The position numbers were made by a program, and so were the translations under genes. The notes beneath the pieces are model-generated. The model made no database searches. It was given only the letters and a program-made list of their open reading frames with translations, and was not told where the DNA came from. Of a stretch of DNA of 64,000 nt, positions 37,278 to 64,000 are shown in pieces. The stretch spans positions 36,891,066 to 36,955,065 of the forward strand of contig OZ007579.1 of NCBI GenBank assembly GCA_963931925.1, read 5' to 3'. The stretch is from Onchidella celtica. Taxonomy: Eukaryota > Mollusca > Gastropoda > Systellommatophora > Onchidiidae. The stretch's first letter is position 1; each line of letters starts with the position of its first letter.

Positions 37278-37684
37278 GTATGTAGGCTATCTGTATAATT
37301 TTAATTATAATTTATATCAATCTAGATGAGGCTTGAGTTTTGGATACAAGGGTCACGCCAAGAAGGTGTGTACATGCAGAACCTTGGACCCTCTGTATCC
37401 GTGTCAACACAAGATTCGATCACTGGGCATGCCAAATATTGTGCAATTGATAGTGCAGCAAATCGCCTAGGTGTACTCTGTCCAAACCAGGAGTTGTATA
37501 TTTAGGCCACACACACAAACGTGAAACAAAAATAGAACACGATATTTCAAATTTAACTTTTTAATACGGTCATAGACCCGAGGCAAAGAGGGTCATTGAC
37601 CCGGGGCCAGATCCTTATGTGTATGGGGCCCTTTACGTTTGGTGCATCGTGACTGACCTTTCATGTGAAATGTGTGACATCATT

Positions 37685-43618: not shown

Positions 43619-45012
43619 ATGGTAAAGACGTGTGTCATGTTTGGATGTACAGCCCGTGACATCAAGAATCCAGACAGAAGCTTTCACTCGTAAGTATTCA
43701 TTTGTATTTCTTGAACACTTAATTAAGCATTAAATTGAGGTTTTAACGTGATTAATAATAGAATGAAGGAATTTTGATCGCTCGACCGTGGCATTGGCAT
43801 GTGGCTAATTTGCACGCGTACATTTCATCTGGCATTTTCGCGCTTGTTCTGTAAAAAAAAAAAGAATTAAGATGTTTAGTTCTAATTTAATCCCCCCCCC
43901 CCCCCCCGCCTCCATTCATTCAAGTAAATAGATCTGTCCATGAGGGATAGTCTGTCTACTAAATCTATGAGCTGCAAGTATAAACAGTGGGCCGAGGCCC
44001 TACAATTACATTGCCTTTCTGCCCCCAGTCCTCTTGTTGGTCGGCATCGACGTAGACTGATAGTGGGGAGCTCCACTGTATATTTTGAAACATATTCTGT
44101 TTCCAGACATAGAAAATGATGAGAAAAAATATGGTTTGGTTATCTAAGCCCAAGCTGTCTGATGTCTGCACGGATTAGTTCTAAGATATGGTTTGGTCTA
44201 AAGTGCCCTGTTCCAGGCTCAGCCACAAGACATGGTGAATTCTTAAAATGTTGTATTGTTATTATATTTAAGATTTTTTTCTTTTCTCTTTGATTCATTC
44301 ATGTGTTGCTGTTCTTTGCTACAAGTTTAGTGATTATTAATATTACTGCTTTTTGTAATATCGTCCACTATTTTGTTTACATTAGAGACAGATTCTGAGC
44401 ACTTGAAAATTGTGATGCAGTTTCACATTGCTGAATGATATATCATAGTCATACAGAAAGATTATTGATAGGAGGAAAACTTGCTCAACGTTGATTTAAA
44501 TTATTGGCCTCTTTCGCGTTGTAATTAATGCTGTAAACTTGCAAGAATTGGAACCTGGGTTCAGTTTCACATAGGAGGTTTACAAAGCTTTTATTTTTTT
44601 TAAATCTTAACCACAGTATTTTTTGCCATTCTCTCCAAGTTTTTATTCTCAAGGTTCAGTGTTTTGTTATTGTATCTGCTATGTTATTATGGAAATCTAG
44701 GAAATTGCTTCAGTCAACCCCATTGATATCTTATTTTCAGATTCCCGTTTTCTAGATCTGAAATTTGTCAGCAGTGGATAAAAAGTGTGAATCGTAAAGA
44801 TGGCAAGACTGGAAAACTATGGCAACCCAGTATTCACTCAAGGATATGCAGTGATCATTTTTTCCCTGGAGACTTTGAAGTGGACTATGCTATTAAAAAG
44901 TTAAGAGAAACTGCTATCCCTACTGTTTTCCCCGGTCACCCACAGAATCAGCAATTGAAGAAGACTCAGAGGCGATCATCATCAAAGAAAAGGAACTCGC
45001 CTAAGAAAAAAT
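43619..45012 (+). CDS. Exons 1-2 of the long gene: THAP zinc finger
   Basis: Exon 1 is 71 bases (43619-43689) and exon 2 is 272 bases (44741-45012). The THAP signature is complete: C5 and C10 (C-x4-C), P26, W36, C60 and H63 (C-x2-H), and the AIPTVF box at 82-87. A lysine/serine-rich tail (SSSKKRNSPKKK) resembles a nuclear localisation signal. The first intron interrupts the same position, after SFH, as in the THAP gene at 39.7 kb. Confidence 0.85.
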
Positions 45013-48000
45013 GTAAATCTCATTTTCTCAGCCTTTCTCTCTTTGTTGTCTAATAGTGATTTTGGGGAAAACTCAGCTAGTTGAATGTAGGTCAGCCACC
45101 AAAAAGAGTGGTGAGTGGAGAAGGTGAGGCAAATAACTGGCCATGAGTAAAGCTCAGACTACTCATATCAACTGACTTAGACTAGTACGAAATGCAATGT
45201 TTGTCTCACTTGAGAGCAAGGTTAAGGTCACAGAATTTGGGAATTTTTGGTAAAATTGCCATTGGTGAAGCCTATTGTCCCTGCCTTTCTCCATTTTTTC
45301 ACTTCTCCCACTCTCTTTCACTATGCTGTGTCTTTTCCCCATTCTCTTCCTCTTTCTAACAGTCTTTTCACTCTCTTTCCTGTCTTATCTTTACCTATTT
45401 GAATGAGATTTTTGTTTCTTTGGAGAAGGGGGGGGGGGGGGGCATGTGGTGAGAACAGAAGGAAGGATTGGAAGTTATAATATTTCTGAGGTAACCTCAT
45501 TAGCCATCCATTCATTCTTTTATGGCATGATTTCATATTCATTCATGTATTGTACTGTTATCCATTTTAATTAAATTTATAAGTTCTTTGTTTATGAACA
45601 ACCATGCCAGAAACAACAAACTAGTACTGTGCCTATTTTGCCATTGTTCAGTTAGACTCTCTTTCCTTGACCTTGCTAACCTTTCCATAGACCAGTATTG
45701 CCACTGACATAGAACAAACTGTTTATTACTTAGCAATAGTTATTGTATGTGTGTGTGAATCATAGAAAGCTCATGCATTAACTTGCAATAAGTTCAAAAT
45801 GGGGTGGAAGAATTAATTGGAATACTATGAAAACCTTCTTCATGGTTGGCATTTTCAATATTATATATTTTCAGTGATTAAGTGGAGTTGACTCTCTAGG
45901 CAACACAAATTGCAGAGATTTTATTATAAAGGCCAAATCAACGCCCGTTGTACTTCCTAAACTTCATGAAATAGTGGGGGCACATCTATGGCAACCCAGT
46001 GGACGACCCCAGTATGGCTGCTGAGCCGTCATATTACTGCGCCGCCTCGCGGACGCACTCAGCGAGTGAGAGAAACCTCCATGTGTTTTGAGCTCCTTGA
46101 GTAGAGCTGTCCCTTTTGCGACGTGCCGTTTCTCTGGCGCGTCACACGCGCAAAAAGTGACCATAATACGACGGCCTTACTTCAGTGTTCCTAGATTGGG
46201 TGGGAAACCGCGGAATTAGGCTGGGTTTTTTTTCGTGATTTGTGGGAATTTTTTCCCATGTGCATGTTTGCTTGTTTTTGGCTGGTTTGGAAGAGCCATC
46301 AAGCTGGAGAGAAAATTAGAATTTTGATTGAAAAAAATCATTAAATAATTCTTTTGGGCACAGTCTTTTGTATGGAGTGGTAAAATTCTGGCCTTTGCCA
46401 GGCTTACCTCTTGGTTTCAGCAAGACTGCCAGATTGTGTAACTGTGGGAGGTAACTACGATGGTGAGATGGCCACTCACCACGGATGTGGGCAATGAGAT
46501 GGTGCAAAACTAGTGGCATGTGGTCAGTCCTTTGTGTGAATGTATAATCAATCAGATCAACAATGCCCACTTGGAATGTTTCCCACTTTAATGATTATTA
46601 ATGTACATAACACTGACCAGTATGAAGGAAGATAAATCATTGTCTTTTTAAATTAGTATGTATGTTTATAACCCCTTTACTCTTTTTTATCAATAAATTT
46701 GTTGACCAATTGAGTAATTTTCCAGCAGTGTTTTTCATTTTTACTGTCATCAAAGTCTATATGCTGTACACTACAAGTATGACTGTTTGAAACCACTCTT
46801 TTTAATAGGTATGTCTGACACCAGTGCAGTGCAAGAAATAGTTGACACCAGTGCTGTGCTGCAAATAGCTGACACTTGCACTGCGCCACAAACACATGTA
46901 GCTGGCTCCAGTGCAAGGCTACAAATAGCTGGTGCCAGTGCTCTGCCACAAGTAGCTGACACCAGTGCTGTGCCACAAACAGTTGACACCAGTGCAAAGC
47001 TACAAGTAGCGGATGCCAGTGCCGTACCACAAATTGCTGACACTGGTCACAGTGTAATGCTGCAAAAACCTGACAACACCAATGCAGTGCCACAGGCTCA
47101 AGCACATGGCAATGGAAAGGCTTTGGATGATTCCTTCGAGGCAGTGCTTCCAGAGTGTAGTATTTTTTTTTATGGGGAGGAGGCATCCATGACAGACACA
47201 GTGAAAAAAGATGTCGAAGGTATTACACGCATAAAGTATGGCCATAAAAATCATCAGAAAATTATCACATTTCCCAGCTGAAGCAGTGCTTCATTTCTCT
47301 TTCTCTCGGATTTGGCCCTTTCTGTCTCGTTTGATACATTTGATTGGCAGTGATAAATTTGGTAAAAGAAAAAAGAAAATGAAAGCATCATGGCAGCTCA
47401 TTGAAAATTGAAAGGTTAAAAGGTTTAACAACTTTTATTTATCAACACTAGATTCATGTTTAGTTAGATATCAGACATACCTGACACAGTGCATCAGACA
47501 CATATTTCAAATATTGCAAGTACACTATTATTATTCATTTTCCTTTGCTGCTTTCTGTGTGTCATTTCATTGTTGTTGTTATCAAATCTTACCAAACTAG
47601 GCAAGAAACTGAGCTTGGTTACAGCTAGTCCAGAGAACAGTAATGAACACAGAGACCAACCATGGTGCAGGAATGGCAGAAAACTGCAGGAAAAACATGA
47701 CAGTAATACAGTGACCAGAGGAGAATACCTTTTACCGCATGGTATAAATAAGGTCAGTTGCCAAAAAGTGCCCTCTTTTTCAATGGGTTCGGTGAAATAC
47801 CTTACAAAGGAAGCCATAGATACTTTTTTAACATAATTTTATGCTTAATGTGCTCAGAAATGGACAAGGTCCCTACAGGAGCAGTTTTGAAGCAGTGGGA
47901 CCATAAACAAAAGCATGAGAAAAAAAATGTACCAAAGTATGTGTATTTCTGGCAGGAAAAAATGGACACATTTATAGTGGTTACTAAGAATGGTGTGTGT

Positions 48001-51000
48001 AACACATGGTAACCATGCAGCAAAACTCGCTGTCTACTGATCAAGACAAATTTATGAGCTAACTAAATGAAATACTGAATTGGAGGTCTCTAGCAACCTC
48101 AACTAAAAAAAAAAAAATGATGATTTCAGAATGCTTTCCATACATGAATTTTCGTGTCAAAAGTATGGGGCTGAAAGAATGAACACTTTGAAGTAGATAT
48201 ATATATAGAATTACTGCAAGCATCAAGCGCTTTTGTGTGTGGTTAGGTCTTCCCTTCAAAATCTCAGAGTTTCTAAACCAAAGTGCATCCCTCAAATGTA
48301 CTAGATCATTTTGTTTCAGCCCGTCCACTTTCGCGTCAACTTTTACCTGTGTGGAACAGTTCGTGGTATCGAAGGATAAAGAAGGCTGTGACAATGTCAT
48401 ACAATGTTAGAAAGGCAAGTTTGCCCTTTCGAGAAGCGCATGTAAAAATTTGAAAACTCCATGTTTGTTTGTTTTTTCACAGTAAATCCAGACACTTTGG
48501 TGTCACATTTTCATGTTTCATGTACGGAACGAAATGCCCATTAACAATCATGTATGGAACGAAAATAGCGCTGAAATAATAGATTTACAAGCCTGTTCAC
48601 CCGCAACGGCATGGAACCGGCGTGGTGACCTGTTTTCAATATCAATTGCATTTTAATGTGTCTAGATCTAGATCTAGCTCTAGTTCACTGTCGTCGTTAC
48701 AATGTTTGTGCATTGTTGTTGGTGTTGTGAGCCAGTAATCTGTTGTAGTCGATAACATTATTCATGTCAACATTGTTTTTGGCACTAGGGGGTGGAGAAC
48801 GGGTCATTTTTCACGCAAGAAAATACTTTGTCATACTCACGTACGGAACAATTCATGTGAGTTGTACACACCGCTGCTTTGTTTTACGGACAGACAGTAT
48901 AAATAAACAAAGAAAATGAAAGCCATAGCTAAGTAAATATGGCATTTCATTTAAAATCAAGGCCCTTATACAGGTATAGGAGAATAAGAGGATGGTTGAG
49001 GGTTGCTCCTTTGTTCCGTACATGAAATGGCACCAAACACGTTACCAAATCTTACAGAAATAGCAGGAATTTTCATGATTTAACATATGGACATGGCAAA
49101 TAATGCTCATCATATTGAGCTTAAATGTCAACTGAAGTGGAATATTTTGCAATAGTTGGCCTTTTATGGTGTCATGGTTCATGTACGGAAAACTGTGGGG
49201 TGGGAGGGGACTTTTTTACCCTTCTATAGCAAAAACTATGACATGAACTGCTTTGAAAGTACAAAAAAAATCATTAAAACACTATAATATTATTCACAAG
49301 ATAAACACAAAACAGAACATTTGGGGCAACATTCAATTTTTACTCATTCTGTCCCAGATCTGGGGGCACCTTTTGGCAACTGACCATGATACACTACAGT
49401 CAGATTACACAGGAGAGAGGACAGGAGGATCCTTGCAGCAAAGGTAAATGGAAGGAGAGAGACACGCCCTATCCTCTGAATGTAGACTATGTTGAAGTTG
49501 GAAAAAAAAAGCGAAATATATAACATTTTCATTCCTTGTTTTCTGCCTCTCTTTACAAATGTCAACTTAAAAAAAAAATTTTCAGTCTCTCTGGTTAGGC
49601 TTTTGTTCACAAACTACCCTCATGAGTATCAAGAATAGTTAAATTCTTTAAACTAGCCAACCCGCGCAAGATAAATCTTGCGAATTTTCCGTGTATCAAG
49701 CCCAGCCATATATCTAGATCAAGGCTACATTAAAATAGCATTTGGATTCGATGCAAAGACTAATAGAACTTACTTTGTTACACCACTATTTCATGTAGAA
49801 ATATACAGGTGTCATTACGTTGATTTTCGACTACCAATGTGGAAAGAGAGGTCAAGGACGCAATTTCCGGTCACACTTTTCTGTTCTATCCGATGAAAAT
49901 GCGCTCTGTTTTTGCTGCTCAAAAAATTTTAATATGAATAATTCTAATACTAAAGACTGATTTTTATTCAAAATAAATGTGTCCGTAACTATTCGTCAAA
50001 AATTGATGCAGTACACCAAGTATCATAATTTTTGATGTCATAGTCGTGAAGTTTTACCTGCTTACAGGTTCACCCATTATCTCAATTATAGTAAGATTCT
50101 ACATTCAAGATTGGTCAGTATCTTGGTCACTATCAGTTGATTCATGACATACTGAGATCTCACTATTCTTGCAGAAAGGTGGATTTAATGGTTTTTGTCT
50201 GTCCCATTGATCCTGTTATTTCCTTTTTTTTCAGTTTTTGATATTCTTTTTGCTTATTGTTATTTCCACTAAATTGTATGAGTACAGTCGTAATGAGCAT
50301 CAGTCAAAGTTCATTGATACTGACGATTTCAATATGAGACCCAGTCCCACAGCATTTGGCCCTTAACCCTCGTCCCGTGTTCAGTGAACTCTTCCACATA
50401 ATGCCCTGTGCAGGGATAGGCGGTGGCCAGTCAGCCGATCGTTTACATGTTGCCGATAAACTCGGCGGTCAGGCCAATCGGGTCCTTTTGATCATGTGTA
50501 TCGTGTTTATTTTAGGACGCAGTAACAATACTAGTGGATAAATTGTAAGTGACCCCTATGATATTTGGATAAAGTACTTGTGATGAGATGCAATAAATTC
50601 TATTGTTAAATAGAGGCCCATAATCAAGAATTTTCTGCATTTACTTGCCCTTCAACACACATTTTGCCCTTTTCCCAAGAGCTGGGCACTTTGTTGTCCC
50701 GAAGTCAGGCCATTCAGGTGAACAAATTATTTTTTAAGATAGGCACTTAATTTACTAACCACATGTATCATGACATTGCCTTCTTCCTCCTGAATTATGT
50801 AAAGGTTCCACATACTATGAAAAGTTTTCTTATCACACCTTTAGCAAGAGATTTGATTTCCAGCTCATAGAGTACACATATGTACTGAAAAGCAGTTTAA
50901 TCAAAGCAACACAATATCTCTCTACTTGCCACATCAAATAAAGACAACGGCCAACAACAGAGTCGGTCATTTTTTTCCCAGTTTTCCCTGATGAAAAACC

Positions 51001-54000
51001 TACAGACAGACGCCCTTATGCAGCATGCCCTAGCATTACATCGGAATTCATCATTACAGACATAGAGCTGTTTCTCAAGTACACAGATGGCCCCTTTCTT
51101 CTCATTTCACATGTAGACGACAACCAGCATCATAGTCAGAAGTTTCCCCAAGATTTTCCCCATTTTGAACTTCAGGTTGTCAGTACTATTACATGAGTTT
51201 CATGAATGGTTGCGAATAGTTGCATCGAACCCATCTGTCAGACATAGTAGGGGTGACAGGATAGATAAGCAAGCGAAAATAGTGTGGGAAAAATGTGAAA
51301 AAGACAATAGTTGTGGCAACTGAATAAACTAAACATGAGGAGCAGGGCTGCTATACAATATAGTGGCCTCCCACAGGATGAGGGTTAATTTCTGTGTCTG
51401 TCTTAATGGAGTTGATTTTGCACAGTAAGAATAATTGCCATACAACAATCATATTGAGTTGCATCATTTCTACAACAATGAATTTTTTTTAGAAATAAAA
51501 CTTAAAAAGGAAAGATTACATATTGGCTCCATTGAGCATGAAGCTTACTTTGCACAGAATTTATCTGCTGAATTTTAAATATTTACTATATAGCAGCGAT
51601 GAGATTGAAAAGCAAAGATTACAAAGTGCAACAGAATTTTGAAGCCAAATTGTTTACATGAAATGAAATTTGAAAACTACAGTTACTGCAAATTGAATTT
51701 CTTTTCCGCTTCTCAGAGATATGGCAACTGTGCACAGAAGCAACCTCTTACAACAGACTGCTTTGGAACAGAGAGTCACTTAGTTTATATTGTTATTAAT
51801 GGAAAGTTGACAAAACAGTTCCTTTGACTGAAGTGGTAATTTGGTTCAGCCAATCATGATGCTTGAGAAAAACCTTAATAGCAGATCAAGTTGACTAAAT
51901 ATATTTAGGTATTAGTAAGTTATGGGGACATTAAGATAGAGGCAGATTATTTGACCCAGACACATTTTTAAGAATAAAACTTAAATTGATTTTGAAACTT
52001 AGTTGTTGATGATATTATGCTTTTGAGACAGGATTTGCCATGCCGAATGTCTCAACCCAGACCAAAATATACAAATGTTACAAACATGTTTTGATTTTGT
52101 ATGTGTGGCAGTTTAGATAATGGCAATTTTTTTTTCTCTGCAGCCAGTCGTGCTTCCTTCCAATCACATGTGGATATTTGGGCGGTACCCTTCACACCAA
52201 CAAGTTCTACTGCCCAGGTTTTACAATACAATGTATACAATACTATGGGTTTCTCATCACACCAGCTGAGTTTCTAGATTTAGCAGGATTTGCTCAGCAC
52301 AATAAATGGAAAGACTTCATTGTAGTAAAGAATGAAGGCTGTCTTCGGTAAGTTTTAACTTGTATGGAGGTTTGGCATGATTTTGTTTACTTGTTTCATG
52401 GATAAAAGCCAAGGCATCTTTAGAGTCTGATTTTCATTATGCATTGTTGTCCTGCAAGTGGTGCATCTAATCAGTCTTTTCTGTATTGTTCTAGGTTGAG
52501 GTAATGCAAAATTACAATGTAAATAAAATCATGAACTCTTTCAGAACTACAGTCTGTCATGTACTATCACAGTTGTACTTAGCTAAATTGATGTCAGTCT
52601 GGATGAAGCATAAGAAAAAAAGAGATGAAAAACAGGGCATATTGGTGGAAAGGGGCAAAGCTGTAAATCGTAATAACATCAAATCATTATTTACATTCTT
52701 ACACTGTACAATTAAACTCAATCTTAAATCAATAAATATTCTGAGAATCCAGTGAAACTTGAGTGAATTAGTTCACAATTCAGCAGAAACAGAAGCCATA
52801 CTAGAAGCTGCGCTAAACTTACAAAACCGAGACATCTGTAAAACAAAAATACTTATTCTCACAGATGCTAGGGCTGTCCTACAGGCCCTTCGTCAAAGCC
52901 CATATGATTATCATCAAAACAAACTCACCTCTGCCTTAGTGCAGTTGTGCCACACATGGTTTTCCAGTGGATCCCTGGTCACTGTAACATCATCGGAAAC
53001 GATAAGGCAGACACTCTGGTAAAAAATGGGGCAAATCTCCCTCAAATCAGAGAAAACATAACATTCTGAGAAGCCAAAAGTCACATTAAGGCAGCCTTGA
53101 AATCCAAGTGGAAACAAAGTCATCCAAGCCATGGAACAGATGATGCGATACACTTGCTCAGCAGAAAGGAGCAAGCTATCATTTTTAGGCTAAGAACTGG
53201 ACCTAACAGACTCCGGCAGCATCTTTACAAAATATTCAGGGTTTAAAAAACTGAGACATGCCCATGTGGAAATTCCCCAGTGAATGCAGAACATGTCCTC
53301 CAACAATGCCCCCTATACAGACAACAGAGGGAAAACAGCTGGCCCCGAGGTGCGGCACGACACACTAAACTATACGGGACAGCAGAGGAACTCAGGAGCA
53401 CAGTGTCCTCCATAAAGGCTACCGGCCTCCTGATATAAACAGTCTGACACAATGCAGAAGAAGAAGAAGAAGTTCACAATTCTAGGTGACAACACTGTCA
53501 CGAGCAAAGTTATGGTCTTGGGGATCTAATGACTGCACGAGAGGCAGCTAACTCACACTCGGACACATACACACAAGAAATTATTAAATAACAAGAATAT
53601 ATGTTGTCAGGCCGGCCGGGCCATATTATTACATAATATTAATATATAAAACAAGAGACAATAGAGGTATATTCAAGCAAAATTTCCAATTACTAACTTA
53701 ACCTAACATCTTTATGCCACTATGTTTCCTATCAAAGGTAATGCAATTAATAGCCAAATGGGTATATTATAAGAAATAAGATATTAATCTAAACTAACAG
53801 TTGAGTCGCCACTGGCCAGACGCCAGGCAAACTCCAGAAATAATACCAGATTCTCAGGGTACACTGAAGGCTATAACAGCCCAGTACATTCAAAGCCTAC
53901 AGAAGCACAACTTGGCTTGTAGGTATTTAAACAGCTTGTACATATAATTCTTTACAGGTAATCGCTCTAATGTTCATATTAAAATCATTGGGCTCGAGTC

Positions 54001-57000
54001 GTAATGATTCACAAGCTAACACTACGCTCATTCGTCGAGTCCAAGCTGTGGTTTTCTCTGACTTCCTATGATGCTGTGGGTTTTCTTCTATCCCTGACTT
54101 CTATCATACTTAATGAATAAGATGAGTTACCGTTGGTCACGCCTAACTGGTAGGCGCGAACATCAGCAGAGCGCAGCGTGGACTCTTAAAAGGTCAGTCC
54201 ACCCAAACCTTTCTTTCTACTCAGTCAGTCCGATGGCAAAGGACTTTTAGTCTTCAGACCACACAGTTCAGGTACTGGCTAACCGGAGATACTTCACGAA
54301 ACGATGCTTCTCTCGTCTGTATTCAATGAATTTCAACGTTACACGATGTTTTATACTATCCAACTACCCGGCAGGGCTAGTCCGCTGGCAAAATTAGTTC
54401 AGCAATCTCATTGGCCGAAACCTCCCACCATTTTGAATGTAGGAATATAGTCTGCACTATTCTATCAGCCAGTTAACGTGCAAAAACTTGTCTAGTCATA
54501 CTTAACAATGTCAACTATCCCCACCTTGTCTCACCCCTACCCCTTACTTCTAATCACGCACATTGAAACCGAAAAGCGTGAACCTAATAGTTTAACTTTG
54601 CAATTCCTTACTCACAAACAATTCGCGAGGACCGTTCAAGGCCACCAGCCAATTTCTCATGGCCCTGGTAAAAAAACAACTCACGGCTCTGCGTGAGACC
54701 CAACAACACCCGACTCGTGACAAACACGGATATCTAAAATATGCAGTCTTGAATCAGAAGAAACATGTCTAGTGGGTCATTTTTCTGCTCGTTATAGCGC
54801 CAACAGAAATGGCTAGAGGAAAAAAAAACTTGACCTTTTCCCTGGCTTTGGCCATAGGATAGAATAATGTTAGAGTATTTGATGCTTATGACCTTGAAGG
54901 ATGTTGACAATGATCATTCATTTATATGTTTGCAGGCAACTTATGGAGACTGGGCAGGTGCGCTTCAGAGATCATCATTTGTTTTGTTCAATGCAATGTC
55001 AGGACATCCCACATGAGAGACCGGATATCAGTCCAGGGAGCCTGGTGGGTGAGACAGAGACTGTAGACGAGTTGGAGGAGGAGGAGGACGAGGTTGAAAA
55101 GAACGGGGATGAACCACTTGAGGAGCCAATTATAGAGAACGATATTGCTATGGAAAATACTGGTGATAACTCTGAGGTAGGTTCACAGTAGGTACTCTCT
55201 CAGGAAGGTCTACCCCCAGCACATGAAAAGCGTGCACATGAGGGAAGATATTGGGAGCCTGCATACACTTTTAAATTACGGGGATTAATGAACAAGTTTG
55301 CTTTTATTTACTCTATTTGAGCAAATTTAGCATTTGGGATTATATAAAACTAAAAGCAATGTTTCTAAAGAATCAGTTAAGTTGTCCGTGCAAAATGTCA
55401 AAGTCTTAGAATATAAATTCTTTATCAAGAACATGAAGCATTCTCATGGCTGTACGCTTGATCAAGGAGGAGGGGGGCTGTGAGTATGAAAAGCATATAA
55501 TTATGTAGGTGGGTGTTAAAAAGATGGAGCGTATTTGCTTCAGAATTGCTCCTTTCATGTTTTATTGTTTTGTCAATTGTATTATGTAGTGTGTTAGTTT
55601 TTCTTTTTCTCACAGGGGTGAGATCGGGCAAGTTGTAGAAAAAAAAAAATTTGAGGAAACTACTCAAAACTAAAACTGACTTGGGGTTTTGCTTTGCAGC
55701 TTTGAAAAGTATACTCCATTTCAATCATTACCCCATCCACAGTAAGCAGAATATTCAGCTCGCAGATATTTACTTTGCTACAGAAAGCCGAATAGTAGGC
55801 TTGAGTGGGCACAGATTTTCTAACACTAATATAGTAAAACCTCGCTATACCGCCACCCGTTATACCGCCATTCTCGCATACCGCCAGCTTTTCGCCGTGG
55901 TACGGATCTGACACCTATACAAAGTCACTAAAAATCTCGTTATACCGCCATCCGCCAACAGTTTGACTGCTACATTCATAACTTGAGTATAGTAAATATT
56001 GCTCGTTATAGCGCCAACGTAAATTTAACCCCCACTCCCCACATCTACCTAAATCCAGCTAACAGTCGGAACATCACTTGGCGCCACAGTCTGTGTTTGT
56101 TACTCAAACACCAATCCTACTACACAGTCTTCGCTTTTGAAGTCCTGATAGGCCTACTGATGGGGCATGCAGTGGGAAAGACGGGTCACAGTTCAATAGA
56201 GAGTTTGTGAACGAACTTAACCCATACCCTGCGCGCTACCCGTAAAGCCCGCTGCCCCGTCAGTGACCTTACTCACGGAGAATATTATCTGGAGTCACTG
56301 ACCCGTGCCGCTAGACGATGACCACATACGCTGTCCACGTGGTTCGGTTTTTATTGATCGGTATGAAAACATTCGCTGCTATGCCTTATCGCGCTTGATA
56401 ATGAATTAACCAGCAAAACCTTAGTCTGTCAGTCTCTAACCAATGATCTGACTTATGATTCCAAACTGACAGCTGTAGTTTTCGTGAGAACAAAGCATGA
56501 TAACTAGCCACGCCCTCCCAAGCCCTACACAAATGGTTTCATCCTGATTGACACATACTAATAAACCAATGTGGGCATTTGGGGCAAAGATTATTTCAGA
56601 GCTTGTTTCTGATTGGTTCTTAGATAGAGACAACTCCAGATGGTGGTCAGCTTGTGAGAAAATGAGATAATATTGTAAATTTGTTGAGCAACAGTTCGCA
56701 TGTCGATGTTACATCTTTTGAAAGTGGGGGGAGAGCCTTTGAAAGCTTAGTCTTTGTGATTCTGACCAGTGGTTCACTGGTTAACATGTCCATGTCACAA
56801 TGCGTTTGATTTAGAAGAGATACAGTGAACAATAACACGGTGGTTGTCATGATTCGGATGTTGTTAAAACTCACGCAGAGAGTGAGTTGTTGTTGTTTTA
56901 CCAGGGCCATGAGAAATTGGCTGGTGGCCTTGAACGGCCCTCGCGAATTATGGTTGGTGAGTAAATAAATGTAAAGTTAAACTGTTAGAGTCACGCTTGT

Positions 57001-60000
57001 CGGTTTTAATGTTCGTGATTAATAAGTAATGGAGTAGGGGTGAAACAAGGTGGGGATAGTTGACATTGTTAAGTATGACTAGACAAGTTTTTGCACGTTA
57101 ACTGGCTGGTAGAATAGTGCAGACGTATTACTACAATTAAAATGGTGGGAGGTTTCGACCTATGAGATAGCTGAACTAATTGGGCCAGCGGACTAGCACG
57201 CTGGGTAGTTAGATAGTATAAAACATCGTGTAACGTTCAGATTTGGTGAATACAGACGAGCAGAAGCATCGTGTCGTGAAGTATCTCCGGTTGGCTAGTA
57301 CCTGAACTGTGTGGTTTGAAGACTAGAAGTCCTTGCTAACGGACTGACTGAGCTCTAGAAAGAAAGGTCTGAGTGGGCTGACCTTTGAAAGCCCACGCTG
57401 CGCTATTTTGATGTTCGCGCCTACCAGTAGGCGTGACCAATGGTAATATATCTTATTAGTTCAAGCATAATAGAAGATCAGAGATAGAGAGAGAACCACA
57501 GCCTCATAGGAAGTCTAAGGAAACCCCAGCTGGCACTCGACGACGAGTGGCCTGTGTTATAGAATTATTTCCATAGTATGATTGAAGTAATATGGCACAT
57601 TGTTGATGAATTGAATAATGATTGTGCATATATATAAATAGTTTTTTTGCAACTGCGTAATTACCTACAAGCCGAAGTGTGCTTCTGTAGGCTTGGAACG
57701 TACTGGGCTCTCCTAACATTCAAGCCCATATGATTTAGGGAGAGTTTGCCTGGCGACTGGCCAGTGGCGACTCAACTGTCACTTTAAATTGATATCTAGT
57801 TTCGTATAATATACCTATTTGCTATTGATTGCAGTACATCCAATAAGGAACCATAATTACATGAATATCATAGATTAAGTTAGTAATTAGAATTTATTGC
57901 TTTGAATATACCTCTATTGTCTTTTGTTTTGTTTATTAATATTTATGTAAAACATGGCCTGACCGGCCTGACATATATAGATCTTCTAGTTGTTTAATAC
58001 TTTTCTTGTGTGGTTGTGTCCGAGTGTGAGTTAGCTGCCTCTCGTGCAGTCGAATGCTCCCCAAGACCCTAACTCTGCTCGTGACATCTGGAGGGGACCC
58101 CACTGACATCTAGAGGACACCACTGACATCTAGAGGACCCCACTGACATCTGAAGAGGACCCCATCAACATCTGCAGGGATACCACTCTAGACTCTTATT
58201 TATGTCATTTTTTGTAGTTTATAGTTTTGTATACTGCTAAATTTTTTTGTTTCTCCCCCACATGTCTGGCATGTCCTCTCGTCATTATGTAAAACATGGC
58301 CTGACCGGCCTGACATATATAGATCCTCTAGTTGTTTAATACTTTTCTTGTGTGGTTGTGTCTGAGTGTGAGTTAGCTGCCTCTCGTGCAGTCGAATGCT
58401 CCCCAAGACCCTAACTCTGCTCGTGACAGTGGTTACGTCTCAAAAAGGTCAGTGACCCGACGCCTGAAAATAGGGCTTGCGCGTGGCGCGGTCAGCTTGA
58501 CCTGGGCGACTTTTGCCGCCCGTGCGGCGTGAGCGCTTGCAAGTCAATACCGACTATTGCCGCCCCGCGCAGGGTGAGGGTTAAGCACGCGCGAGGTGAT
58601 GCTTCAACTGGTTCATATCGGTCGCGGGTTTGATACAAACAATGCACGTTTGTTGCTGAATTGTAATGTAGCATTATTTGTCGTGTTGCAATACATAATA
58701 CTTTTACTCTTAAGGTGCGATTTCCTGAATAGATAAACTCCAACACACCTAAACACAAAAAAAAACAACAAAAAAATACAAATGATAGCAATGTAAACTT
58801 CAAAATGACAACGGAGGTTTATGTCTAGTGGAGAGATAAGGGAGATAACTGCAATATTTTAGACAATGTTAGCCAGTCCAATGTCGGTAAATTACTTATT
58901 ACTTATTTCCCTTGTTCTACATGGTATTTTCGTTGTACCGCCATTCTCGGTATACCGCCAATTTTCTTTTTGCCCCTTACTTGGCGGTGTAACGAGGTTT
59001 TTACTCTACCTAAGCTGACTTCTCGAAATACTGAATCCCATCCTGGTTCATTGATTATCCTTTACTTTAATATCTAATGTATTATGTCGTGTTTATACTG
59101 AGCGAAAGAAAAACATCTTTGAACTATGTCTACATTTCAAACTGGATAGTGTTGAAAGTTCCCGTCTACACCCACAGAAGGTAATCAGTCCAGCTACAGA
59201 TCTTTCAGTTTAAAACCACAGCATTTTTCATTCCCCATTAATGGCATTATTATAACACTTACCAGTTGATTCATTAAAAAAATTTTCCTTCGTCTGCCCT
59301 ATTCATTCAACCTGGGTATGACCATCTGGATTATTTTAAAATGCAACTAAGCAAGAGCAATGCCGTTGCCTTGACAGGGTATCATTTAATTGTAACTGAT
59401 TTATTGTTGTTGTTGTGATTGTTTTGTTTTTTTCCCAAACATTTGCAGACTGGGGGTTCTGGTGGTACTATCCATGTTTTGGACGCCAGCAGAGTGACTG
59501 ATTTCTCTTCTGATGTGACAGAGACCAAGGAGGAGATAAAGCCAATAATTGAAGAGGTAGACATGATTGTCTGTAGCCATGAAAAAAGGCAGTAGTAGTT
59601 TCATTTCTTATGTATTCCAGATAAACAAGTTATTGGTGACATAATTCTTTTGTTTATTTTCTTGCTGTTTGTTGTTTTATGTATTTTATATTGTTGTCTT
59701 ATGTAAGTTTTTAACTACCGTACATTATTTTTTACAAGTTACTGGTGTCATAATTCTTTTGTTTATTTTCTTGCTGTTTGTTATTTTATGTATTTTAAAT
59801 TGTTGTCTTATGTAAGTTTTTAACTACCGTACATTATTTTTTACAAGTTACTGGTGTCGTAATTCTTTTGTTTATTTTCTTGCTGTTTGTTATTTTATGT
59901 ATTTTAAACTGCTGTTTTATTTATATTTAATTATCTTAACATTGAGAAGTTATTGGTGACAAAATTCTTTTGTTCATTTCTTTGCTGTCTTTTTTTTTAG

Positions 60001-63000
60001 TTTTCTGCATTATGTGGTCTTTCATTGTTGAGAGAGGGCAAGAGGAACATAAGGCTGTTATTTTAGGAATGCCATTTGACAGACAGTGAAGATATAACAG
60101 ATTAACTTTTCACTGTATGTTTAGATAAAGGGTGATATAATGTCTTTTTCTTATTTCGTTGCAGTCTTGTGATTCAGCAAGTTCCACCCACAGCAAAGGC
60201 AATTTGCTGCAACTCATTCATCACGAGTCTCCTGCCTTATTGGATGTGATGGAAATTAAAAAGGAGATTGATTCAGAGTTTGACGAAGTAAGCATTCATA
60301 ATGAACAAAAGTGGAAGTTCGAGATGCAGAGGCAGGTTTTGCTGCATTCAGACAAAGCAGGGCTGTTCATACTGTTTGGGTTTTGGGGAGCCCATGATCA
60401 AGATATCACTATCAGATTCTCACAGTAACTTGAAGGATTTCGACTTGAAACCACCACACTGTAGATATGAATCATATTTTTTTTTCTTTCTTGTCGTTTC
60501 CTCTGGGCTTAAGCATTTTCTCTGTGGTTTTCACTATTTTCAAGTCTTGCTCTGTGTTCACTAACACACATTTTTATTATCTTATGTGTGTGAATACATG
60601 GGCCAATCCTTAGGAGTGTGGTTCAGACTGAGTGCGTTCGTGTAAGAATTCTTCATTTTGAGCCTTGCACCCTTTAAATTTACCAGAGGATAGCACAGAG
60701 TTTAACATGTCACAGAAAAAAAAAAAGAAGACTAAAAATTTGACTATTTTGTGTATTAGCAGTGCAAACTGCCTGGCAGTTGACAGCTTTCTAAAAAATT
60801 GAGAAAATAAATATTGTTGGTTATTAACTAATTAACTGGGAATTCCCCCTTGAGCCTGGTGCAGTTGTAATTGTTTTTTGTGTTATTGCCTTGGGTGTTT
60901 TCACTGTGATATACCTTTCTGGCCCATTATTCTAAGACTCCTAGTGAAGTGAACATTGTTTTATCTGCATAATCACTTCTTGTTTGTTTCTCACAGAAGA
61001 ACATTGGTTGATATGTTGTTTTCTGTTGTATTACAGCAATGATTTACAATATAAGATTTCACTGTAAACCCTCACCCTGCGAAGGGCGACATATGTCGGC
61101 ATCCACTTTCCATGCACTCACTCTGCACGGGTGGTCAAAGTCGGCAAGGTCAAGCTGACCACGCAGTGCGCAAGCCTGATTTTCACGCGTCGGGTCACTG
61201 ACCTCTTTGAGACGTAACTACTGTTTTATTTCTCACTGTATCTCTTCTAAATCAAAGGCATTGTGACAAGGACATGTTAACCAGTAAACCACTGGTCAGA
61301 ATCACAAAGGCTAAGCTTTCAGTTTCAAAAGCTCTCCCCAAGTTATCAAAAGATGTAACATCGACATGCGAGACTGTTGCTCAATAAATCTGCAATATTA
61401 TCTCTTTTTCTCACAAGCTGACCATCATCTAGAGTTGTCTGTACCTAAGAACCAATCAGAAACAAGCTCTAAAACGAACTTTGCCCCAAATGCCCACATT
61501 GGTTCATTAGTATGTGTCAGTCAGGATGAAACCATTTGTTTATGGCTTGGGGGGCGTGGCTAGTTATCATGCTTTGTTCTCATGAAAAGTACGGCTGTCA
61601 GTTTAGTTTCATAAGTCAGATCACTGGTTAGAGACTTACAGACAAAGGTTTCGCTGGTTAATCCATTGTCAAGTGTGACAAAGCATAGCAGCGAATGTTT
61701 TCATACCGATCAATAAAAACCGAGCCATGTGGACAGCGGTAGTGTGGTCATTGTACATCGGCAAGGGTCAGTGCGACCCAGGCACGATTCTCCGTAATGT
61801 CACTGACCGAACAGAAGGCTTTGAGTGTCGGTCGCAGGGTGAGCGTTAAATTACACAGAGCATAATCAACTGGTCAGTCCAAATCTCTGTCAAAGTATCT
61901 TTTTAAAATTTTTTTTGTTTTTTGTTTTGTTTTATTGAAAACTCCATAATCAGTTCTTCATCGAGTGAAAATTGCAGGGCTATCCTAATATCTCGACATC
62001 AGTGGGACCGTCGGAGTTGCATCGGGTAAAGAAAGGCGAAATAAAAGATTAGTGGTGGCGGAGGTCAAAATAAGCAAGGGAGATCCAATATCACCAATAT
62101 GGGAAAAGTGTCCAATACACAACACAGTTATGTCCCTTGTTTCTTCTAATTGGTGGCATGTCATCACCTGTTCCTCCAATTTCATCGTTGTGTGGATTGG
62201 TTGCATGGCAAACATTTGCTGATATTGGTGAGGCGCCGCAGCTGTACATCAAATGCGCAGTGTTTTACTTTTTCTTTTTAACCGTGACCTGTTTCTTCAG
62301 AAAAAAAAAGTGATGATGCCAATACACATACAGTGTGGCAGTTAAACAATAGATCAAGGCCAAGTGCTAGGAGCAATGGCATACGCATGTTTTATTTTTT
62401 TATTCTTTTTAAAAATGTCAGCACACACAGTGTTGTACTCTGTACTTCTATTGTCGTGTGCTTATATGCATCGCACTCCAAGCTGGCGTTATCGAAGCCA
62501 AAGGTCATCCTCTTTGTCCTTTGTCCACACACCCCCTCTCCCACTCCGTACCGCCGGGAATGTGAAAAGAAATAAAGAGGTCCGATGTGCGGGAAGTTAT
62601 GTGGGCTTATTTGGCAGCACAGTGGTAGACCTAGTGCATTTGTTGTGCTCTGGTCACGGAGAAATGTGTCCATATAAGAGGAAAGAATAGAATAACATGT
62701 CAAATTACAGGGAAATGTCAAGTAGCATTAAAGAAGAACAGGTTGGGACTTAAAAATTGTGTTGAGTTGCCCAGAATGTTAACAAAAGCGATGTCGAGAT
62801 AAGTGGATTGGACTGTATGTCAACTATCCCATCATGTTTAGAACACAAACTGTGATAATTTGTCCTCTCTCACTACAGGTTTCTGCCGGAAAGGTGCACT
62901 CAGTTGAACTGCATAATAATAATGTAAATGAATTGTGTCGTGCCTGTGGTGGACGTGTGAGGTCAAGTCTGGAGAAGAGTCGAAACAGATCAAAGCAAAG

Positions 63001-63973
63001 CTGCCATACAGTTAAGAAGGAACTTCTTTTATATTTTAACATCGGTATTGAAGGAGACATTGAAGGCTGCCATTCGTCATTTGTGTGCTTCAAATGTATG
63101 AAAAAAATGAATAATATGAAGAAGCGGAGTGGGTATCGGGCTATTCAAGCAGCGAGGGACTTGGCAGAAAAATCCAGAACATTATGGACACAGTACAATC
63201 CAAGTTTGTCATTAAGTGCATGTTCAGTTTGTGGGCTCCATGCCCAGCAAAGTTTGGGCTCCGTGAATAAATCCACCACCCTGCAGACATCTTCAGAAAA
63301 GACAGATACATGTACTTCACATATACCACTATCAGCAGACCATGTGCTCACCTCAGAAAGGACAGACACATGCACTTCACATATATCACCATCAGCAGAC
63401 CATGTGCTCACCTCAGAAAGGACAGACACATGCACTTCACATACATCACCATCAGCAGTCCATGTGCTCGCCTCAGAAAGGACAGATACATGTACTTCAC
63501 ATACATCACCATCAGCAGACCATGTGCTCACCTCAGAAAGGACAGATACATGCACTTCACATACATCACCATCAGCAGTCCATGTGCTCGCCTCAGAAAG
63601 GACAGATACATGTACTTCACATACATCACCATCAGCAGACCATGTGCTCACCTCAGAAAGGACAGGTACATGTACTTCACATACAGCACTATCAGCAGAC
63701 CATGTGCTCACCTCAGAAAGGACAGGTACATGTACTTCACATACATCACTATCAGCAGACCATATACTCACCTCAGAAAGGACAGATACATGCACTTCCA
63801 ATACAGCACTATCAGCAGACCGTGTGCTCACCTCAGAAACAACAGATATATGTACTTCACAAACAGCACTATCAGCAGACCATGTGCTCACCTCAGAAAC
63901 AACAGATACATGTACTTCACATTCAGCACTTTCAGCAGACCATGTGCTTACCTCAGAAAGGACAGGTACATGA
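43619..63973 (+). CDS. THAP-SAND-RAG1-N-like zinc protein, ten joined exons, 3' end uncertain
   Basis: The gene model joins 43619-43689, 44741-45012, 46809-47219, 47601-47741, 47858-47936, 52144-52347, 54936-55176, 59449-59556, 60165-60287 and 62879-63973. Every junction has GT/AG sites and preserves phase. That gives about 914 residues before a TGA at 63971-63973, which is created by a one-base deletion inside a repeat. Domains: THAP (1-88), 9-residue repeats (118-210), SAND (about 325-405), acidic linker (around 420-470), a three-CxxC zinc region (570-668), and 20-residue repeats (from about 691). It is probably nuclear and DNA-binding. I do not recognise the full architecture as a named protein. 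Additional or alternative exons are possible. Confidence 0.75.
45013..46808 (+). other. Intron 2 of the long gene
   Basis: Contains a poly-G run (45427-45442) and a GC-richer patch with CpG-rich motifs at 45950-46160. No supported exon or bounded repeat. Confidence 0.5.
46809..47219 (+). CDS. Exon 3: nine-residue tandem repeat region
   Basis: Begins after TTTTTAATAG and ends at GAAG|GTATTA. It encodes about ten degenerate copies of a unit like DTSAVPQIA (residues 118-210; period 27 bases, bases 46817-47095), with two copies expanded to 11 residues. The repeat is low in charge and probably an unstructured spacer. It closes with LDDSFEAVLPECSIFFYGEEASMTD and an acidic/lysine stretch. Confidence 0.75.
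46817..47095 (+). repeat. 27-bp coding repeat, about ten degenerate copies
   Basis: Units such as GACACCAGTGCTGTGCCACAAATAGCT-type sequence in frame; the reverse strand also stays open through it, which produces long antisense frames of no significance. Confidence 0.7.
47601..47936 (+). CDS. Exons 4-5: linker leading into the SAND domain
   Basis: Exon 4 (47601-47741) follows CCAAACTAG and uses the donor CATG|GTATAA. Exon 5 (47858-47936) follows TGCTCAG and ends CCAAA|GTATGT. The chosen exon 4 donor is decided by phase: the nearby AAG|GTCAGT donor would not join exon 5 in frame. Encoded segments include KKLSLVTASPENSNEHRDQPW and VPTGAVLKQWDHKQKHEKKNVP, polar and lysine-rich. Confidence 0.6.
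48450..49250. repeat. Region with five copies of a TCATGTACGGAAC motif
   Basis: Copies at 48518-48530, 48548-48560 (one change), 48838-48849 (one change), 49013-49025 (inverted) and 49179-49190. Three copies are preceded by a TGGTGTCA-like block. The region lies in intron 5 of the long gene and has no coding frame. Confidence 0.6.
49653..49700 (-). mobile_element. Possible Helitron 3' terminus
   Basis: On the minus strand, GCAAGATTTATCTTGC (perfect 7-bp stem) is followed by GCGGGTTGG, CTAG and then T. This has the form of a Helitron 3' end. The matching 5' TC end was not located. Confidence 0.3.
50367..51384. mobile_element. TTAA-flanked piggyBac-like element, about 1 kb
   Basis: TTAA at 50363-50366 and 51385-51388. 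Ends are CCCTCGTCCCGTG and, inverted, CCCTCATCCTGTG (11 of 13). The interior has no transposase frame. The end sequence differs from the CCCTCACCCTGCG family, so it is a second related family. It lies in intron 5. Confidence 0.65.
52144..55176 (+). CDS. Exons 6-7: SAND domain and acidic tail
   Basis: Exon 6 is 52144-52347 and exon 7 is 54936-55176. Joined, they read FLPITCGYLGGTLHTNKFYC, CIQYYGFLITPAEFLDLAG, HNKWKDFIV and then RQLMETGQVRF. This fits the SAND fold: the LPVTCG-like entry, the xTPxEFExxGG helix, the KDWK-type DNA-contact motif (here NKWKDF) and the closing LxxLMExG helix. Exon 7 continues into an acidic region with a run of E/D (ELEEEEDEVEKNGDEPLEE). SAND domains bind DNA in Sp100, AIRE and DEAF1-type chromatin regulators. 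The 2.6-kb intron between the exons holds a LINE fragment and a solo LTR. Confidence 0.8.
52782..53470 (+). pseudogene. 5'-truncated LINE copy with RNase H domain
   Basis: Frames read TEAILEAALNL, KILILTDARAVLQAL, then after a one-base frameshift WIPGHCNIIGNDKADTLV, a classic RNase H end. After a stop comes a zinc-knuckle-like CPCGNSPVNAEHVLQQCP. The element ends in an (AAG)n tail. A 12-bp target duplication AGTTCACAATTC flanks it (52770-52781 and 53471-53482). RNase H places it in the I-like group of LINEs. It is dead on arrival: truncated, frameshifted and with stops. It sits in intron 6 of the long gene. Confidence 0.8.
53496..54722 (-). mobile_element. Solo LTR, copy 1
   Basis: Starts TGTCACGAGC and ends GACTCGTGACA, with a perfect 5-bp target duplication AACAC (53491-53495 and 54723-54727). 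It is 1227 bp. Orientation is inferred from the TATA-like TTTATA on the opposite strand at about 54348, matching the TATAAA of copy 2. No internal retroelement genes remain. A 5-bp duplication fits Gypsy or Bel-Pao elements. Confidence 0.8.
55745..55829. repeat. Dispersed repeat X, left half of split copy
   Basis: Matches 24060-24142 (CTCGCAGATATTTACTTTGCTACAGA..., TAACACTAATAT). The copy resumes at 59009. Confidence 0.6.
56845..58438 (+). mobile_element. LTR retroelement remnant: full 5' LTR, short internal piece, partial 3' LTR
   Basis: Starts TGTCATGATTCGG, ends CTCGTGACA, and is flanked by a perfect 5-bp duplication GTGGT (56840-56844 and 58439-58443). The 5' LTR runs to about 58086. A leftover internal segment of about 200 bp follows, then the last 150 bp of the LTR are repeated (about 58288-58438). 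TATAAA at 57217-57222 fits the U3 promoter. Same family as the solo LTR at 53.5 kb, inverted relative to it. No coding region survives. Confidence 0.8.
58083..58185. repeat. Short tandem repeat, 20-22 bp unit, about five copies
   Basis: Units of the form GACATCTAGAGGACCCCACT just after the 5' LTR end, in the retained internal segment. Confidence 0.65.
59009..59180. repeat. Dispersed repeat X, right half of split copy
   Basis: CCTAAGCTGACTTCTCGAAA onward matches 24144-24315 closely. Confidence 0.6.
59449..60287 (+). CDS. Exons 8-9: acidic linker
   Basis: Exon 8 (59449-59556, 36 codons) and exon 9 (60165-60287, 41 codons) are both phase 0 with good acceptors (ATTTGCAG, CGTTGCAG) and donors (GAG|GTAGAC, GAA|GTAAGC). 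They encode serine/acid-rich segments (TETKEEIKPIIEE; MEIKKEIDSEFDE), two similar IKxE(I)-type patches that could be SUMO-attachment-like. No domain is recognised. Confidence 0.65.
59625..59960. repeat. Tandem repeat, about 115-bp unit, three to four copies
   Basis: Units containing TTACTGGTGTCATAATTCTTTTGTTTATTTTCTTGCTG-like sequence begin near 59629, 59740, 59848 and 59949. The middle copies are nearly identical. Intronic (intron 8). Confidence 0.75.
60288..62878 (+). other. Intron 9 of the long gene
   Basis: Holds the third piggyBac-like MITE copy. A possible acceptor at about 62300 (TTTCTTCAG) starts a frame whose phase does not fit the flanking exons, so I left it out. Confidence 0.5.
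61069..61845 (+). mobile_element. PiggyBac-like MITE, copy 3
   Basis: CCCTCACCCTGCGAAGGG start and CGCAGGGTGAGCG end, then TTAA at 61846-61849. The left target is decayed (GTAAA). About 777 bp, clearly the same family as the copy at 33567-34360. Confidence 0.75.
62879..63973 (+). CDS. Exon 10: RAG1 N-terminal-like zinc region and 20-residue repeats
   Basis: The acceptor CTCACTACAG joins phase 0. Residues 570-668 hold three CxxC pairs in the layout LCRAC (570/573), about 45 residues, IGIEGDIEGCHSSFVCFKC (620/623), about 40 residues, W ... ACSVC (665/668). The conserved region of RAG1 upstream of its RING finger has the same order: LCRxCG, then an I-D-x-x-x-D-x-x-x-x-H-P-x-x-F-C-x-x-C segment, then W ... 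CxxC. Similar domains are known in molluscan N-RAG-TP elements and other invertebrate proteins. There is no RAG1 core (DDE) here. A 60-bp repeat array follows. Confidence 0.7.
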   Translation, partial: VSAGKVHSVELHNNNVNELCRACGGRVRSSLEKSRNRSKQSCHTVKKELLLYFNIGIEGDIEGCHSSFVCFKCMKKMNNMKKRSGYRAIQAARDLAEKSRTLWTQYNPSLSLSACSVCGLHAQQSLGSVNKSTTLQTSSEKTDTCTSHIPLSADHVLTSERTDTCTSHISPSADHVLTSERTDTCTSHTSPSAVHVLASERTDTCTSHTSPSADHVLTSERTDTCTSHTSPSAVHVLASERTDTCTSHTSPSADHVLTSERTGTCTSHTALSADHVLTSERTGTCTSHTSLSADHILTSERTDTCTSNTALSADRVLTSETTDICTSQTALSADHVLTSETTDTCTSHSALSADHVLTSERTGT

Positions 63974-64000
63974 CTTCACATACAGCACTATCAGCAGACC
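63301..64000 (+). repeat. 60-bp coding minisatellite, eleven full units plus a partial one
   Basis: Units of 20 codons (TDTCTSHTSPSADHVLTSER-like) repeat in exact 60-base register from 63301 to the window end. Units at 63481 and 63601 are identical, and those at 63421 and 63541 differ by one base, so a 120-bp dimer was duplicated. The twelfth unit lacks one base at about 63971. Each unit has one cysteine and one or two histidines, but no recognised zinc-finger spacing. Confidence 0.9.

What the first reader, a model, noticed from the sequence alone, without database searches (positions are those of the whole stretch)
43619..64000. Unfamiliar gene joining THAP, SAND and RAG1-N-like zinc modules
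Ten exons over 20 kb join with correct GT/AG sites and uninterrupted phase. They encode a THAP finger (C5, C10, C60, H63, AIPTVF), a SAND domain and a three-CxxC region like the RAG1 N-terminal part, plus two kinds of amino-acid repeats. Each module is known; I do not know this combination. THAP has transposase ancestry, SAND belongs to chromatin regulators, and the RAG1-like region is known from mobile elements, so this could be a domesticated DNA-binding regulator.
Basis: partly seen in the sequence, partly recalled or inferred. Interest (0 to 1): 0.9.

Follow-up and report, generated by a model that had tools for sequence, protein, structure and literature searches.

The report
THAP–SAND gene with captured transposon zinc module
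A stretch of animal DNA holds the parts of what is probably one gene for a DNA-binding regulator, whose last part is a zinc module related to that of a multi-copy mobile element in the same genome and to the front end of the immune gene RAG1; that the parts make one protein still needs RNA evidence.

Summary
All three modules are real. Pfam finds THAP (58.9 bits), SAND (58.5) and RAG1 importin-binding (24.1; cut-off 23.3) in these exons. The SAND is closest to GMEB1, zinc motif included, but has NKWK for KDWK. A stop lies at 63971-63973 and a poly-A signal 0.4 kb on. New: the genome was reached. The RAG1-like module belongs to a repetitive family (150 of 698 candidates scored, all 150 match); one copy has inverted ends and a 991-aa frame. 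Exon 10 is at most 44% identical to the other 149, its frame is open, and the element's later part was not found downstream. Against: at Pfam-profile level exon 10 is not among the genome's matches at E 0.001. Best reading: a host regulator that captured a transposon's zinc module. That one transcript joins the parts is unproved (confidence about 0.5): no RNA or orthologue could be consulted.

The parts
43619..43689 (+). Exon 1: start of THAP (C5, C10); 71 nt from ATG, donor GTAAGT; an in-frame ATG also lies at 43610
   Evidence: Pfam THAP
44741..45012 (+). Exon 2: rest of THAP (C60, H63, AIPTVF) and a basic K/R/S-rich tail
   Evidence: THAP1 2ko0, 62.0 bits, E 4.6e-16
46809..47219 (+). Exon 3: degenerate repeat (27/54-bp unit at 46815-47043)
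47601..47752 (+). Exon 4: no known domain; strong donor GTCAGT (98.7th percentile), phase out 0
49358..49443 (+). Exon 5, tentative: 86 nt bridging phase 0 to phase 2. The 44-nt version 49400-49443 shares the donor but has a weak acceptor
   Evidence: best of 5 single bridging exons with both sites at 3 bits or more
52144..52347 (+). Exon 6: most of the SAND domain, with NKWK in place of KDWK; acceptor 99.8th percentile; no in-frame ATG upstream before the stop at 52118
54936..55176 (+). Exon 7: end of SAND with the GMEB-type H-x3-C-x3-C motif, then an acidic stretch; phase out 0
59449..59556 (+). Exon 8: 36 codons, phase 0-0, ends ETKEEIKPIIEE; moderate splice sites
60165..60287 (+). Exon 9: 41 codons, phase 0-0, ends MEIKKEIDSEFDE
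62879..63973 (+). Exon 10 (last): RAG1-N-like zinc module (first CxxC from 62936, third CxxC to 63232), then 20-aa repeats, stop TGA 63971-63973
   Evidence: positions counted from the model
63293..64000 (+). 60-bp tandem array (11.8 units, 92% matches) coding the 20-aa repeats; degenerate units run a little past the window end
39704..39774 (+). Exon 1 (71 nt) of a second, upstream THAP gene
40165..40622 (+). Exon 2 of the upstream THAP gene; with the best-scoring donor (40623) it leaves in phase 1, as exon 2 of the gene described does
   Evidence: THAP 66.3 bits

Best explanation
One host gene of ten coding exons over about 20 kb encodes a nuclear regulator of about 920 residues. Its THAP finger and its GMEB-type SAND domain are two DNA- or chromatin-binding modules. 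Its last exon carries the N-terminal zinc module (C1-C3) of a RAG1-N-like transposon, captured long ago without the rest of the element and kept as a protein- or chromatin-contact module. Shown: the modules, an open splice frame, the repetitive element family, an open and strongly diverged exon 10 with no close copy among the 150 scored matches, and the end of the frame. Inferred: one transcript, nuclear role, binding functions and the capture itself.
For: Three Pfam domains over cut-off in order on one strand. SAND spans exons 6-7, so that junction is backed by homology to GMEB1 over 87 residues. With the 86-nt exon 5, 13 of the 18 internal splice sites are at or above the 95th percentile of AG or GT places in 43-64 kb, the other five at 84.6-92.8. 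SAND exon 6 needs an upstream coding exon, for no in-frame ATG precedes it, and exon 4 ends in a strong donor. Exons 7-10 are joined in phase 0. Exon 10 starts at an acceptor in the 99.7th percentile. Its cysteines at columns 20, 23, 42, 70, 73, 115 and 118 are kept in 29 of 29 compared copies. The next best of 150 scored matches is 44% identical. It is open over 127 codons despite an end branch of 0.72 changes per column. The element's DUF1280 part was not found in the window or the next 20 kb.
Against: The THAP-SAND junction rests on a small exon chosen to fit the phase; 5 candidates pass the site thresholds and 195 without them. Of 13 phase-0 exon candidates between exons 7 and 10, exon 9 ranks 2nd and exon 8 only 8th; the first lies partly in a repeat. 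The codon-use test had no power: verified domain exons mostly failed it too. The frame of exon 10 runs upstream past its acceptor and holds an ATG (ORF 62783-63973), so the RAG1-like part could stand alone. With the Pfam profile against the whole genome only one locus passes E 0.001, not exon 10, and with its tail exon 10 is below the cut-off. KDWK is not intact, so SAND DNA binding may be lost. No transcript, no orthologue.
Confidence: 0.5

Rival explanations
1. Two neighbouring genes: a THAP gene (exons 1-4 plus a terminal exon) and a separate GMEB-like SAND gene whose last exon is the captured RAG1-N-like module.
For: The THAP-SAND joint is the weakest. In the 4.4-kb gap there are 30 terminal-exon candidates (acceptor at least 5 bits) and 11 initial-exon candidates that would join exon 6 directly (donor at least 5 bits). 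A stand-alone THAP gene lies just upstream.
Against: The best of those initial-exon donors scores 7.0 bits, the other nine listed 5.2-5.6, against 8.5 for exon 4's donor. The best bridging exon scores 16.6 bits for both sites together. Initial exons that would join through exon 5 were not scanned.
Confidence: 0.27
2. Exon 10 is a separate gene or an old, independent fragment of the transposon lying downstream of a THAP/SAND gene, and is not spliced to it.
For: At least 150 copies of the module lie around the genome. The exon 10 frame runs upstream past the acceptor and contains an ATG. The introns here hold many repeats.
Against: An unselected fragment this diverged should hold stops: in a simulation on a relative's module (2000 trials each, stops only) it stayed free of stops in 26% of trials at 0.1 hits per site, 7.6% at 0.2, 3.4% at 0.3 and 1.0% at 0.5; how much of exon 10's change was unselected is not known. 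Neither the rest of the L008 element frame nor its ends were found nearby. For the other three SAND loci the nearest of the 150 scored copies on the same contig is more than 1 Mb away.
Confidence: 0.18
3. The tandem THAP pair are alternative first modules of one locus: exon 2 of either THAP copy can leave in phase 1 and could splice to exon 3.
For: Same first-exon length and same exon-2 exit phase in both copies; reading by eye I saw no clear later exon for the upstream copy before 43.6 kb, but ran no scan for one.
Against: The upstream copy reads like an ordinary THAP protein with a charged tail of its own; phase agreement alone has one chance in three. Not tested further.
Confidence: 0.05

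Closest known systems
GMEB1/GMEB2 (SAND transcription factors)
   Same: SAND aligned over 87 residues with 1oqj (58.6 bits), including the end motif H-x3-C-x3-C; the highest score of 4 SAND sequences compared (65.5 bits, 37.6% identity over 85 residues)
   Different: KDWK is NKWK and positive residues just after it are lost; THAP and RAG1-N-like modules are added if this is one gene (GMEB architecture recalled)
THAP1-type THAP proteins
   Same: C2CH zinc signature, AIPTVF, 62.0 bits to THAP1; first coding exon of 71 nt, as I recall for human THAP1
   Different: THAP is followed by repeats and, if one gene, SAND and a RAG1-N-like module
N-RAG-TP (Aplysia element of RAG1-N-like sequence; PMC8355894, passages seen) and the 991-aa element of this genome
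   Same: Same zinc module as the 991-aa frame, gapless over 112 residues, all three CxxC
   Different: Exon 10 lacks DUF1280 and the rest of the 991-aa frame, and has no close copy among 150 scored. PMC8355894 says N-RAG-TP consists entirely of RAG1-N-like sequence, so the 991-aa element with DUF1280 also differs from that description; the Aplysia sequence was not compared
RAG1 / RAG1L N-terminal zinc motifs C1-C3 (PMC7204232, passages seen)
   Same: Pfam RAG1_imp_bd over cut-off; a RAG1 chain (21wb) is the only PDB sequence hit, and weak (E 0.019)
   Different: No RING or recombinase core matched in exon 10 with its tail

Membership tests
THAP zinc finger protein | C2CH ligands and AVPTIF-like box in an 80-90-residue domain | tested here: met
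   Pfam 58.9 bits over the whole profile 1-87; C5, C10, C60, H63, AIPTVF read directly
SAND domain protein | SAND domain by profile | tested here: met
   58.5 bits, profile 5-75 of 76
SAND domain protein | KDWK DNA-contact motif | tested here: not met
   NKWK here; KDWK in GMEB1 and in the three other SAND loci of this genome
GMEB | GMEB-type zinc motif at the end of SAND | tested here: met
   H-x3-C-x3-C aligned with 1oqj; that these residues bind zinc is recalled
GMEB | binding to ACGT half-sites, sensitive to CpG methylation (PMC4274154, passages seen) | not testable with these tools
   needs protein
RAG1 / RAG1L recombinase | three N-terminal zinc motifs C1-C3 | tested here: inconclusive
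   three CxxC; Pfam 24.1 over cut-off 23.3 but 21.0 with the tail, and not among genome matches of the profile at E 0.001; the profile match covers the first two CxxC
RAG1 / RAG1L recombinase | RING (ZDD) and catalytic core | tested here: not met
   no such Pfam match in exon 10 with its tail at E up to 1; the frame ends at 63973
N-RAG-TP-like mobile element | inverted ends and many copies | tested here: not met
   no close copy among 150 scored of 698 candidates; the ends of the L008 copy do not match near it; ends of other subfamilies not tested
N-RAG-TP-like mobile element | homologous N-terminal zinc module | tested here: met
   85.5 bits, no gaps over 112 residues, against the 991-aa frame

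The most novel reading that the evidence does not exclude
A host transcription regulator has captured the N-terminal zinc module of a RAG1-N-like transposon as its last exon, in one protein with THAP and a GMEB-type SAND. This would be a domestication of the RAG1-N module outside the RAG1 line, in a gene without any recombinase part. The same genome still holds many near-identical copies of a related element, so the protein could be tested as a reader or repressor of those elements.
Probability: 0.42. Interest if true: 0.72.

Novelty: new variant of a known kind. Interest (0 to 1): 0.55.

Why it matters
What the RAG1 N-terminal zinc region did before it was joined to the recombinase core is, as far as I know, an open question. 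A host gene that kept only this module, beside DNA-binding modules, would be a place to test its function without recombination. It would also be a case of host-transposon exon capture with relatives of the donor still present in the same genome.

Tried and rejected
A 194-nt open stretch at 50982-51175 with a strong acceptor was considered as an exon and dropped: its frame and exit phase do not fit the neighbours, its donor is weak and Pfam gave no match.

Codon-usage test for exons 1, 3-5, 8 and 9: rejected as evidence, because four of the five verified domain stretches, left out in turn, did not separate from open intron stretches (306, 813, 510 and 348 of 1000 random stretches scored as high; the fifth, the upstream THAP, 64 of 1000). 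One row ('e7rest') was set in the wrong frame and is ignored; exon 3 had no random control. In that same test exon 4 beat all 1500 random stretches; I give this no weight.

Homologous proteins: three searches, none with a hit (7994 candidates scored after a cut; 171; 11). So few candidates for a SAND stretch suggest that the collection holds few or no animal proteins, and the emptiness says nothing about animal orthologues. Viral contigs: 15 pattern matches, none a relative. Structure predictions of exon 10 and of the SAND exon without an alignment were too poor to use (mean pLDDT 35.5 and 42.4), so no fold search was run. PDB sequence search with the C-terminal part of the RAG1-like module: no hit at E up to 10. 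A first tree was wrong because minus-strand loci were not turned; it was redone and only that is used. Weak Pfam matches below cut-off (DUF2028, Znf_SCAND3, zf-AD) were not used.

Literature: RAG1 + SAND domain + THAP: 0 papers. THAP domain + SAND domain: 1, a worm transcription-factor list (listing only). SAND domain + mollus: 1, unrelated by title (listing). SAND + THAP + transcription factor famil + mollus: 2, unrelated by title (listing). So the combination was not found by these four searches of this open-access library.

Not answered: a THAP census of the genome and the copy number of exon 5.
Full report
OBSERVATION. Exons 1-4 (43619-47752) encode a THAP finger and repeats. Exons 6-7 (52144-55176) encode a SAND domain and an acidic stretch. 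Exons 8 and 9 are short. Exon 10 (62879-63973) encodes a three-CxxC region and 20-aa repeats. Pfam gives THAP 58.9, SAND 58.5 and RAG1_imp_bd 24.1 bits, against cut-offs 23.9, 22 and 23.3. With the repeat tail appended the last falls to 21.0, and the Pfam profile searched against the whole genome finds one locus at E 0.001 or better (112 of 112 candidates scored), which is not exon 10. By Pfam alone the third module is therefore borderline; the comparison with that one locus, below, is what settles it.

JUNCTIONS. Joining exon 4 directly to exon 6 breaks the frame. The acceptor at 49358 with the same donor scores 8.6 bits (98.4th percentile) and gives the same phase. Among single exons of 30-400 nt that bridge phase 0 to phase 2 with both sites at 3 bits or more, it is the best of 5. 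With the 86-nt exon, 13 of 18 internal sites are at or above the 95th percentile and five at 84.6-92.8. Because exon 5 was chosen to fit, the phase there is not evidence for one gene. The SAND exon has no in-frame ATG before the stop at 52118, so it needs some upstream coding exon. Exons 7 to 10 meet in phase 0; 36 and 41 codons are open by chance at 13% and 10% of random intron places. Of 13 phase-0 candidates between exons 7 and 10, exon 9 ranks 2nd and exon 8 8th.

GENE END. The frame closes at TGA 63971-63973, in a repeat unit that lacks one base relative to its neighbours; in the former frame the next stop is at 64042, and a poly-A signal begins 416 bases after 63973. About 6.5 kb downstream another coding stretch begins that reads to me like ankyrin repeats (no Pfam run).

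SAND. The closest solved sequence is GMEB1 (58.6 bits, against 30.7 for SP140), and the alignment runs over the exon 6/7 junction and includes H-x3-C-x3-C. The own genome has 4 SAND matches (8 of 8 candidates scored). The three others have KDWK intact and a different end motif; ours has NKWK and scores highest with GMEB1 (65.5 bits, 37.6% identity over 85 residues, against 30.8 and 28.5 bits for L001 and L002, and 22.7 bits over only 21 residues for L003, whose matched exon is shorter). A SAND domain split differently over exons could have been missed by that exon-wise search.

RAG1-LIKE MODULE. The only PDB sequence hit is RAG1 (21wb, E 0.019, weak). The own genome was searched with exon 10: of 698 candidates 150 were scored and all 150 matched, the weakest at E 1.1e-13. 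Fourteen of the 150 rows (my count) have a 991-aa open frame. One of those copies (L008, the locus) has inverted repeats outside its frame (14 of 14 and 19 of 19 bases, at 1824-1871 and 5876-5913; other, looser pairs in that list I take as chance), and Pfam RAG1_imp_bd (27.0 bits) and DUF1280 (60.6 bits) over cut-off. Its module aligns with exon 10 over 112 residues without a gap, 34% identity, 85.5 bits. So the module is that of a DNA-transposon-like element resembling N-RAG-TP of Aplysia (PMC8355894, passages seen; that text says N-RAG-TP consists entirely of RAG1-N-like sequence, which the 991-aa frame does not; sequences not compared). Papers describe the same region as C1-C3 in RAG1 and RAG1L (PMC7204232, passages seen) and as the Chapa domain of Chapaev elements (PMC4411706, passages seen).

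SINGLE COPY AND CONSTRAINT. Exon 10 finds itself at 100% and nothing else above 44% among the 150 scored; 548 candidates that ranked lower in the tool's first look were not scored. The nearest, L010 and L011, are copies of another subfamily whose frames are broken. I aligned exon 10 with the 29 best-ranked other copies (29 of 149; 23 of them in one clade): the cysteines at columns 20, 23, 42, 70, 73, 115 and 118 are kept in 29 of 29 and the histidine at column 65 in 28 of 29. Exon 10 is a lone branch of 0.72 changes per column, with no stop and no gap in its frame. The tool warns that its place in the tree is unsure. Differences to L010 by codon position are 0.447, 0.368 and 0.675, the pattern of a protein under constraint; part of that path is the element's own history, so this is not proof for the host branch. 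In a simulation of substitutions only, a relative's module stayed free of stops in 26%, 7.6%, 3.4% and 1.0% of 2000 trials at 0.1, 0.2, 0.3 and 0.5 hits per site. The element's later parts were not found in the window or the next 20 kb: only the exon 10 stretch matched below E 0.1 (that match of 360 columns runs on into the repeats and is inflated there, since filters were off).

SURROUNDINGS. A second THAP gene lies upstream (39704-39774, 40165-40622), with the same 71-nt first exon and, with its best donor, the same exit phase 1 of exon 2; the two exon 2 sequences are 36% identical over 84 residues. This suggests local duplication of an ordinary THAP gene. The introns hold inverted copies of repeats.

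HOW IT PROBABLY WORKS. Inferred: a nuclear factor that binds DNA through THAP, may bind DNA or proteins through SAND (the altered KDWK argues for weakened DNA contact), and uses the captured zinc module for protein or chromatin contacts. SAND proteins DEAF1 and GMEB1/2 bind CpG-containing half-sites in a methylation-sensitive way (PMC4274154, passages seen). That the protein acts on the related elements, of which 10 of the 29 compared modules are identical in protein, is a guess that can be tested.

LIMITS. No transcript, no orthologue and no named species. The protein collection seems to hold few or no animals. THAP was not counted in the genome because the tool stayed busy.

Noticed in passing
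window 39704-39774 and 40165-40622 (+): A second THAP gene with the same 71-nt first exon and exon-2 exit phase as the gene studied; its later exons were not identified.
   Followed up: partly
L008 1824-5913 (G000:C2:6821323-6825412): Open 991-aa RAG1-N/DUF1280 element with inverted ends; 14 of 150 scored genome matches have a 991-aa frame, and 10 of 29 compared modules (of a related subfamily) are identical in protein, which suggests recent spread.
   Followed up: partly
window 53493-54680 and 56889-58431; 56329-56845 and 61216-61738: Pairs of inverted repeat copies (78-97% complementary in pieces) lying in introns on both sides of exon 7 and beyond.
   Followed up: no
window 18260-21394 (+): Long LINE-like frame (1044 aa) with endonuclease and reverse transcriptase domains; another frame at 1-927 may be a related fragment (a sub-cut-off DUF6451 match).
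   Followed up: no
window 36963-37298 (+): Open frame that reads to me like part of a Harbinger-type nuclease; Pfam gave no match.
   Followed up: no
window 25561-25938 (-): Frame with the end of a Ras-family GTPase domain (Pfam Ras 26.4 bits), ending in CC, probably a last exon.
   Followed up: no
L001, L002 (G000:C2, about 0.42 Mb apart): Two SAND loci of similar sequence with intact KDWK, possibly a duplicated gene.
   Followed up: no
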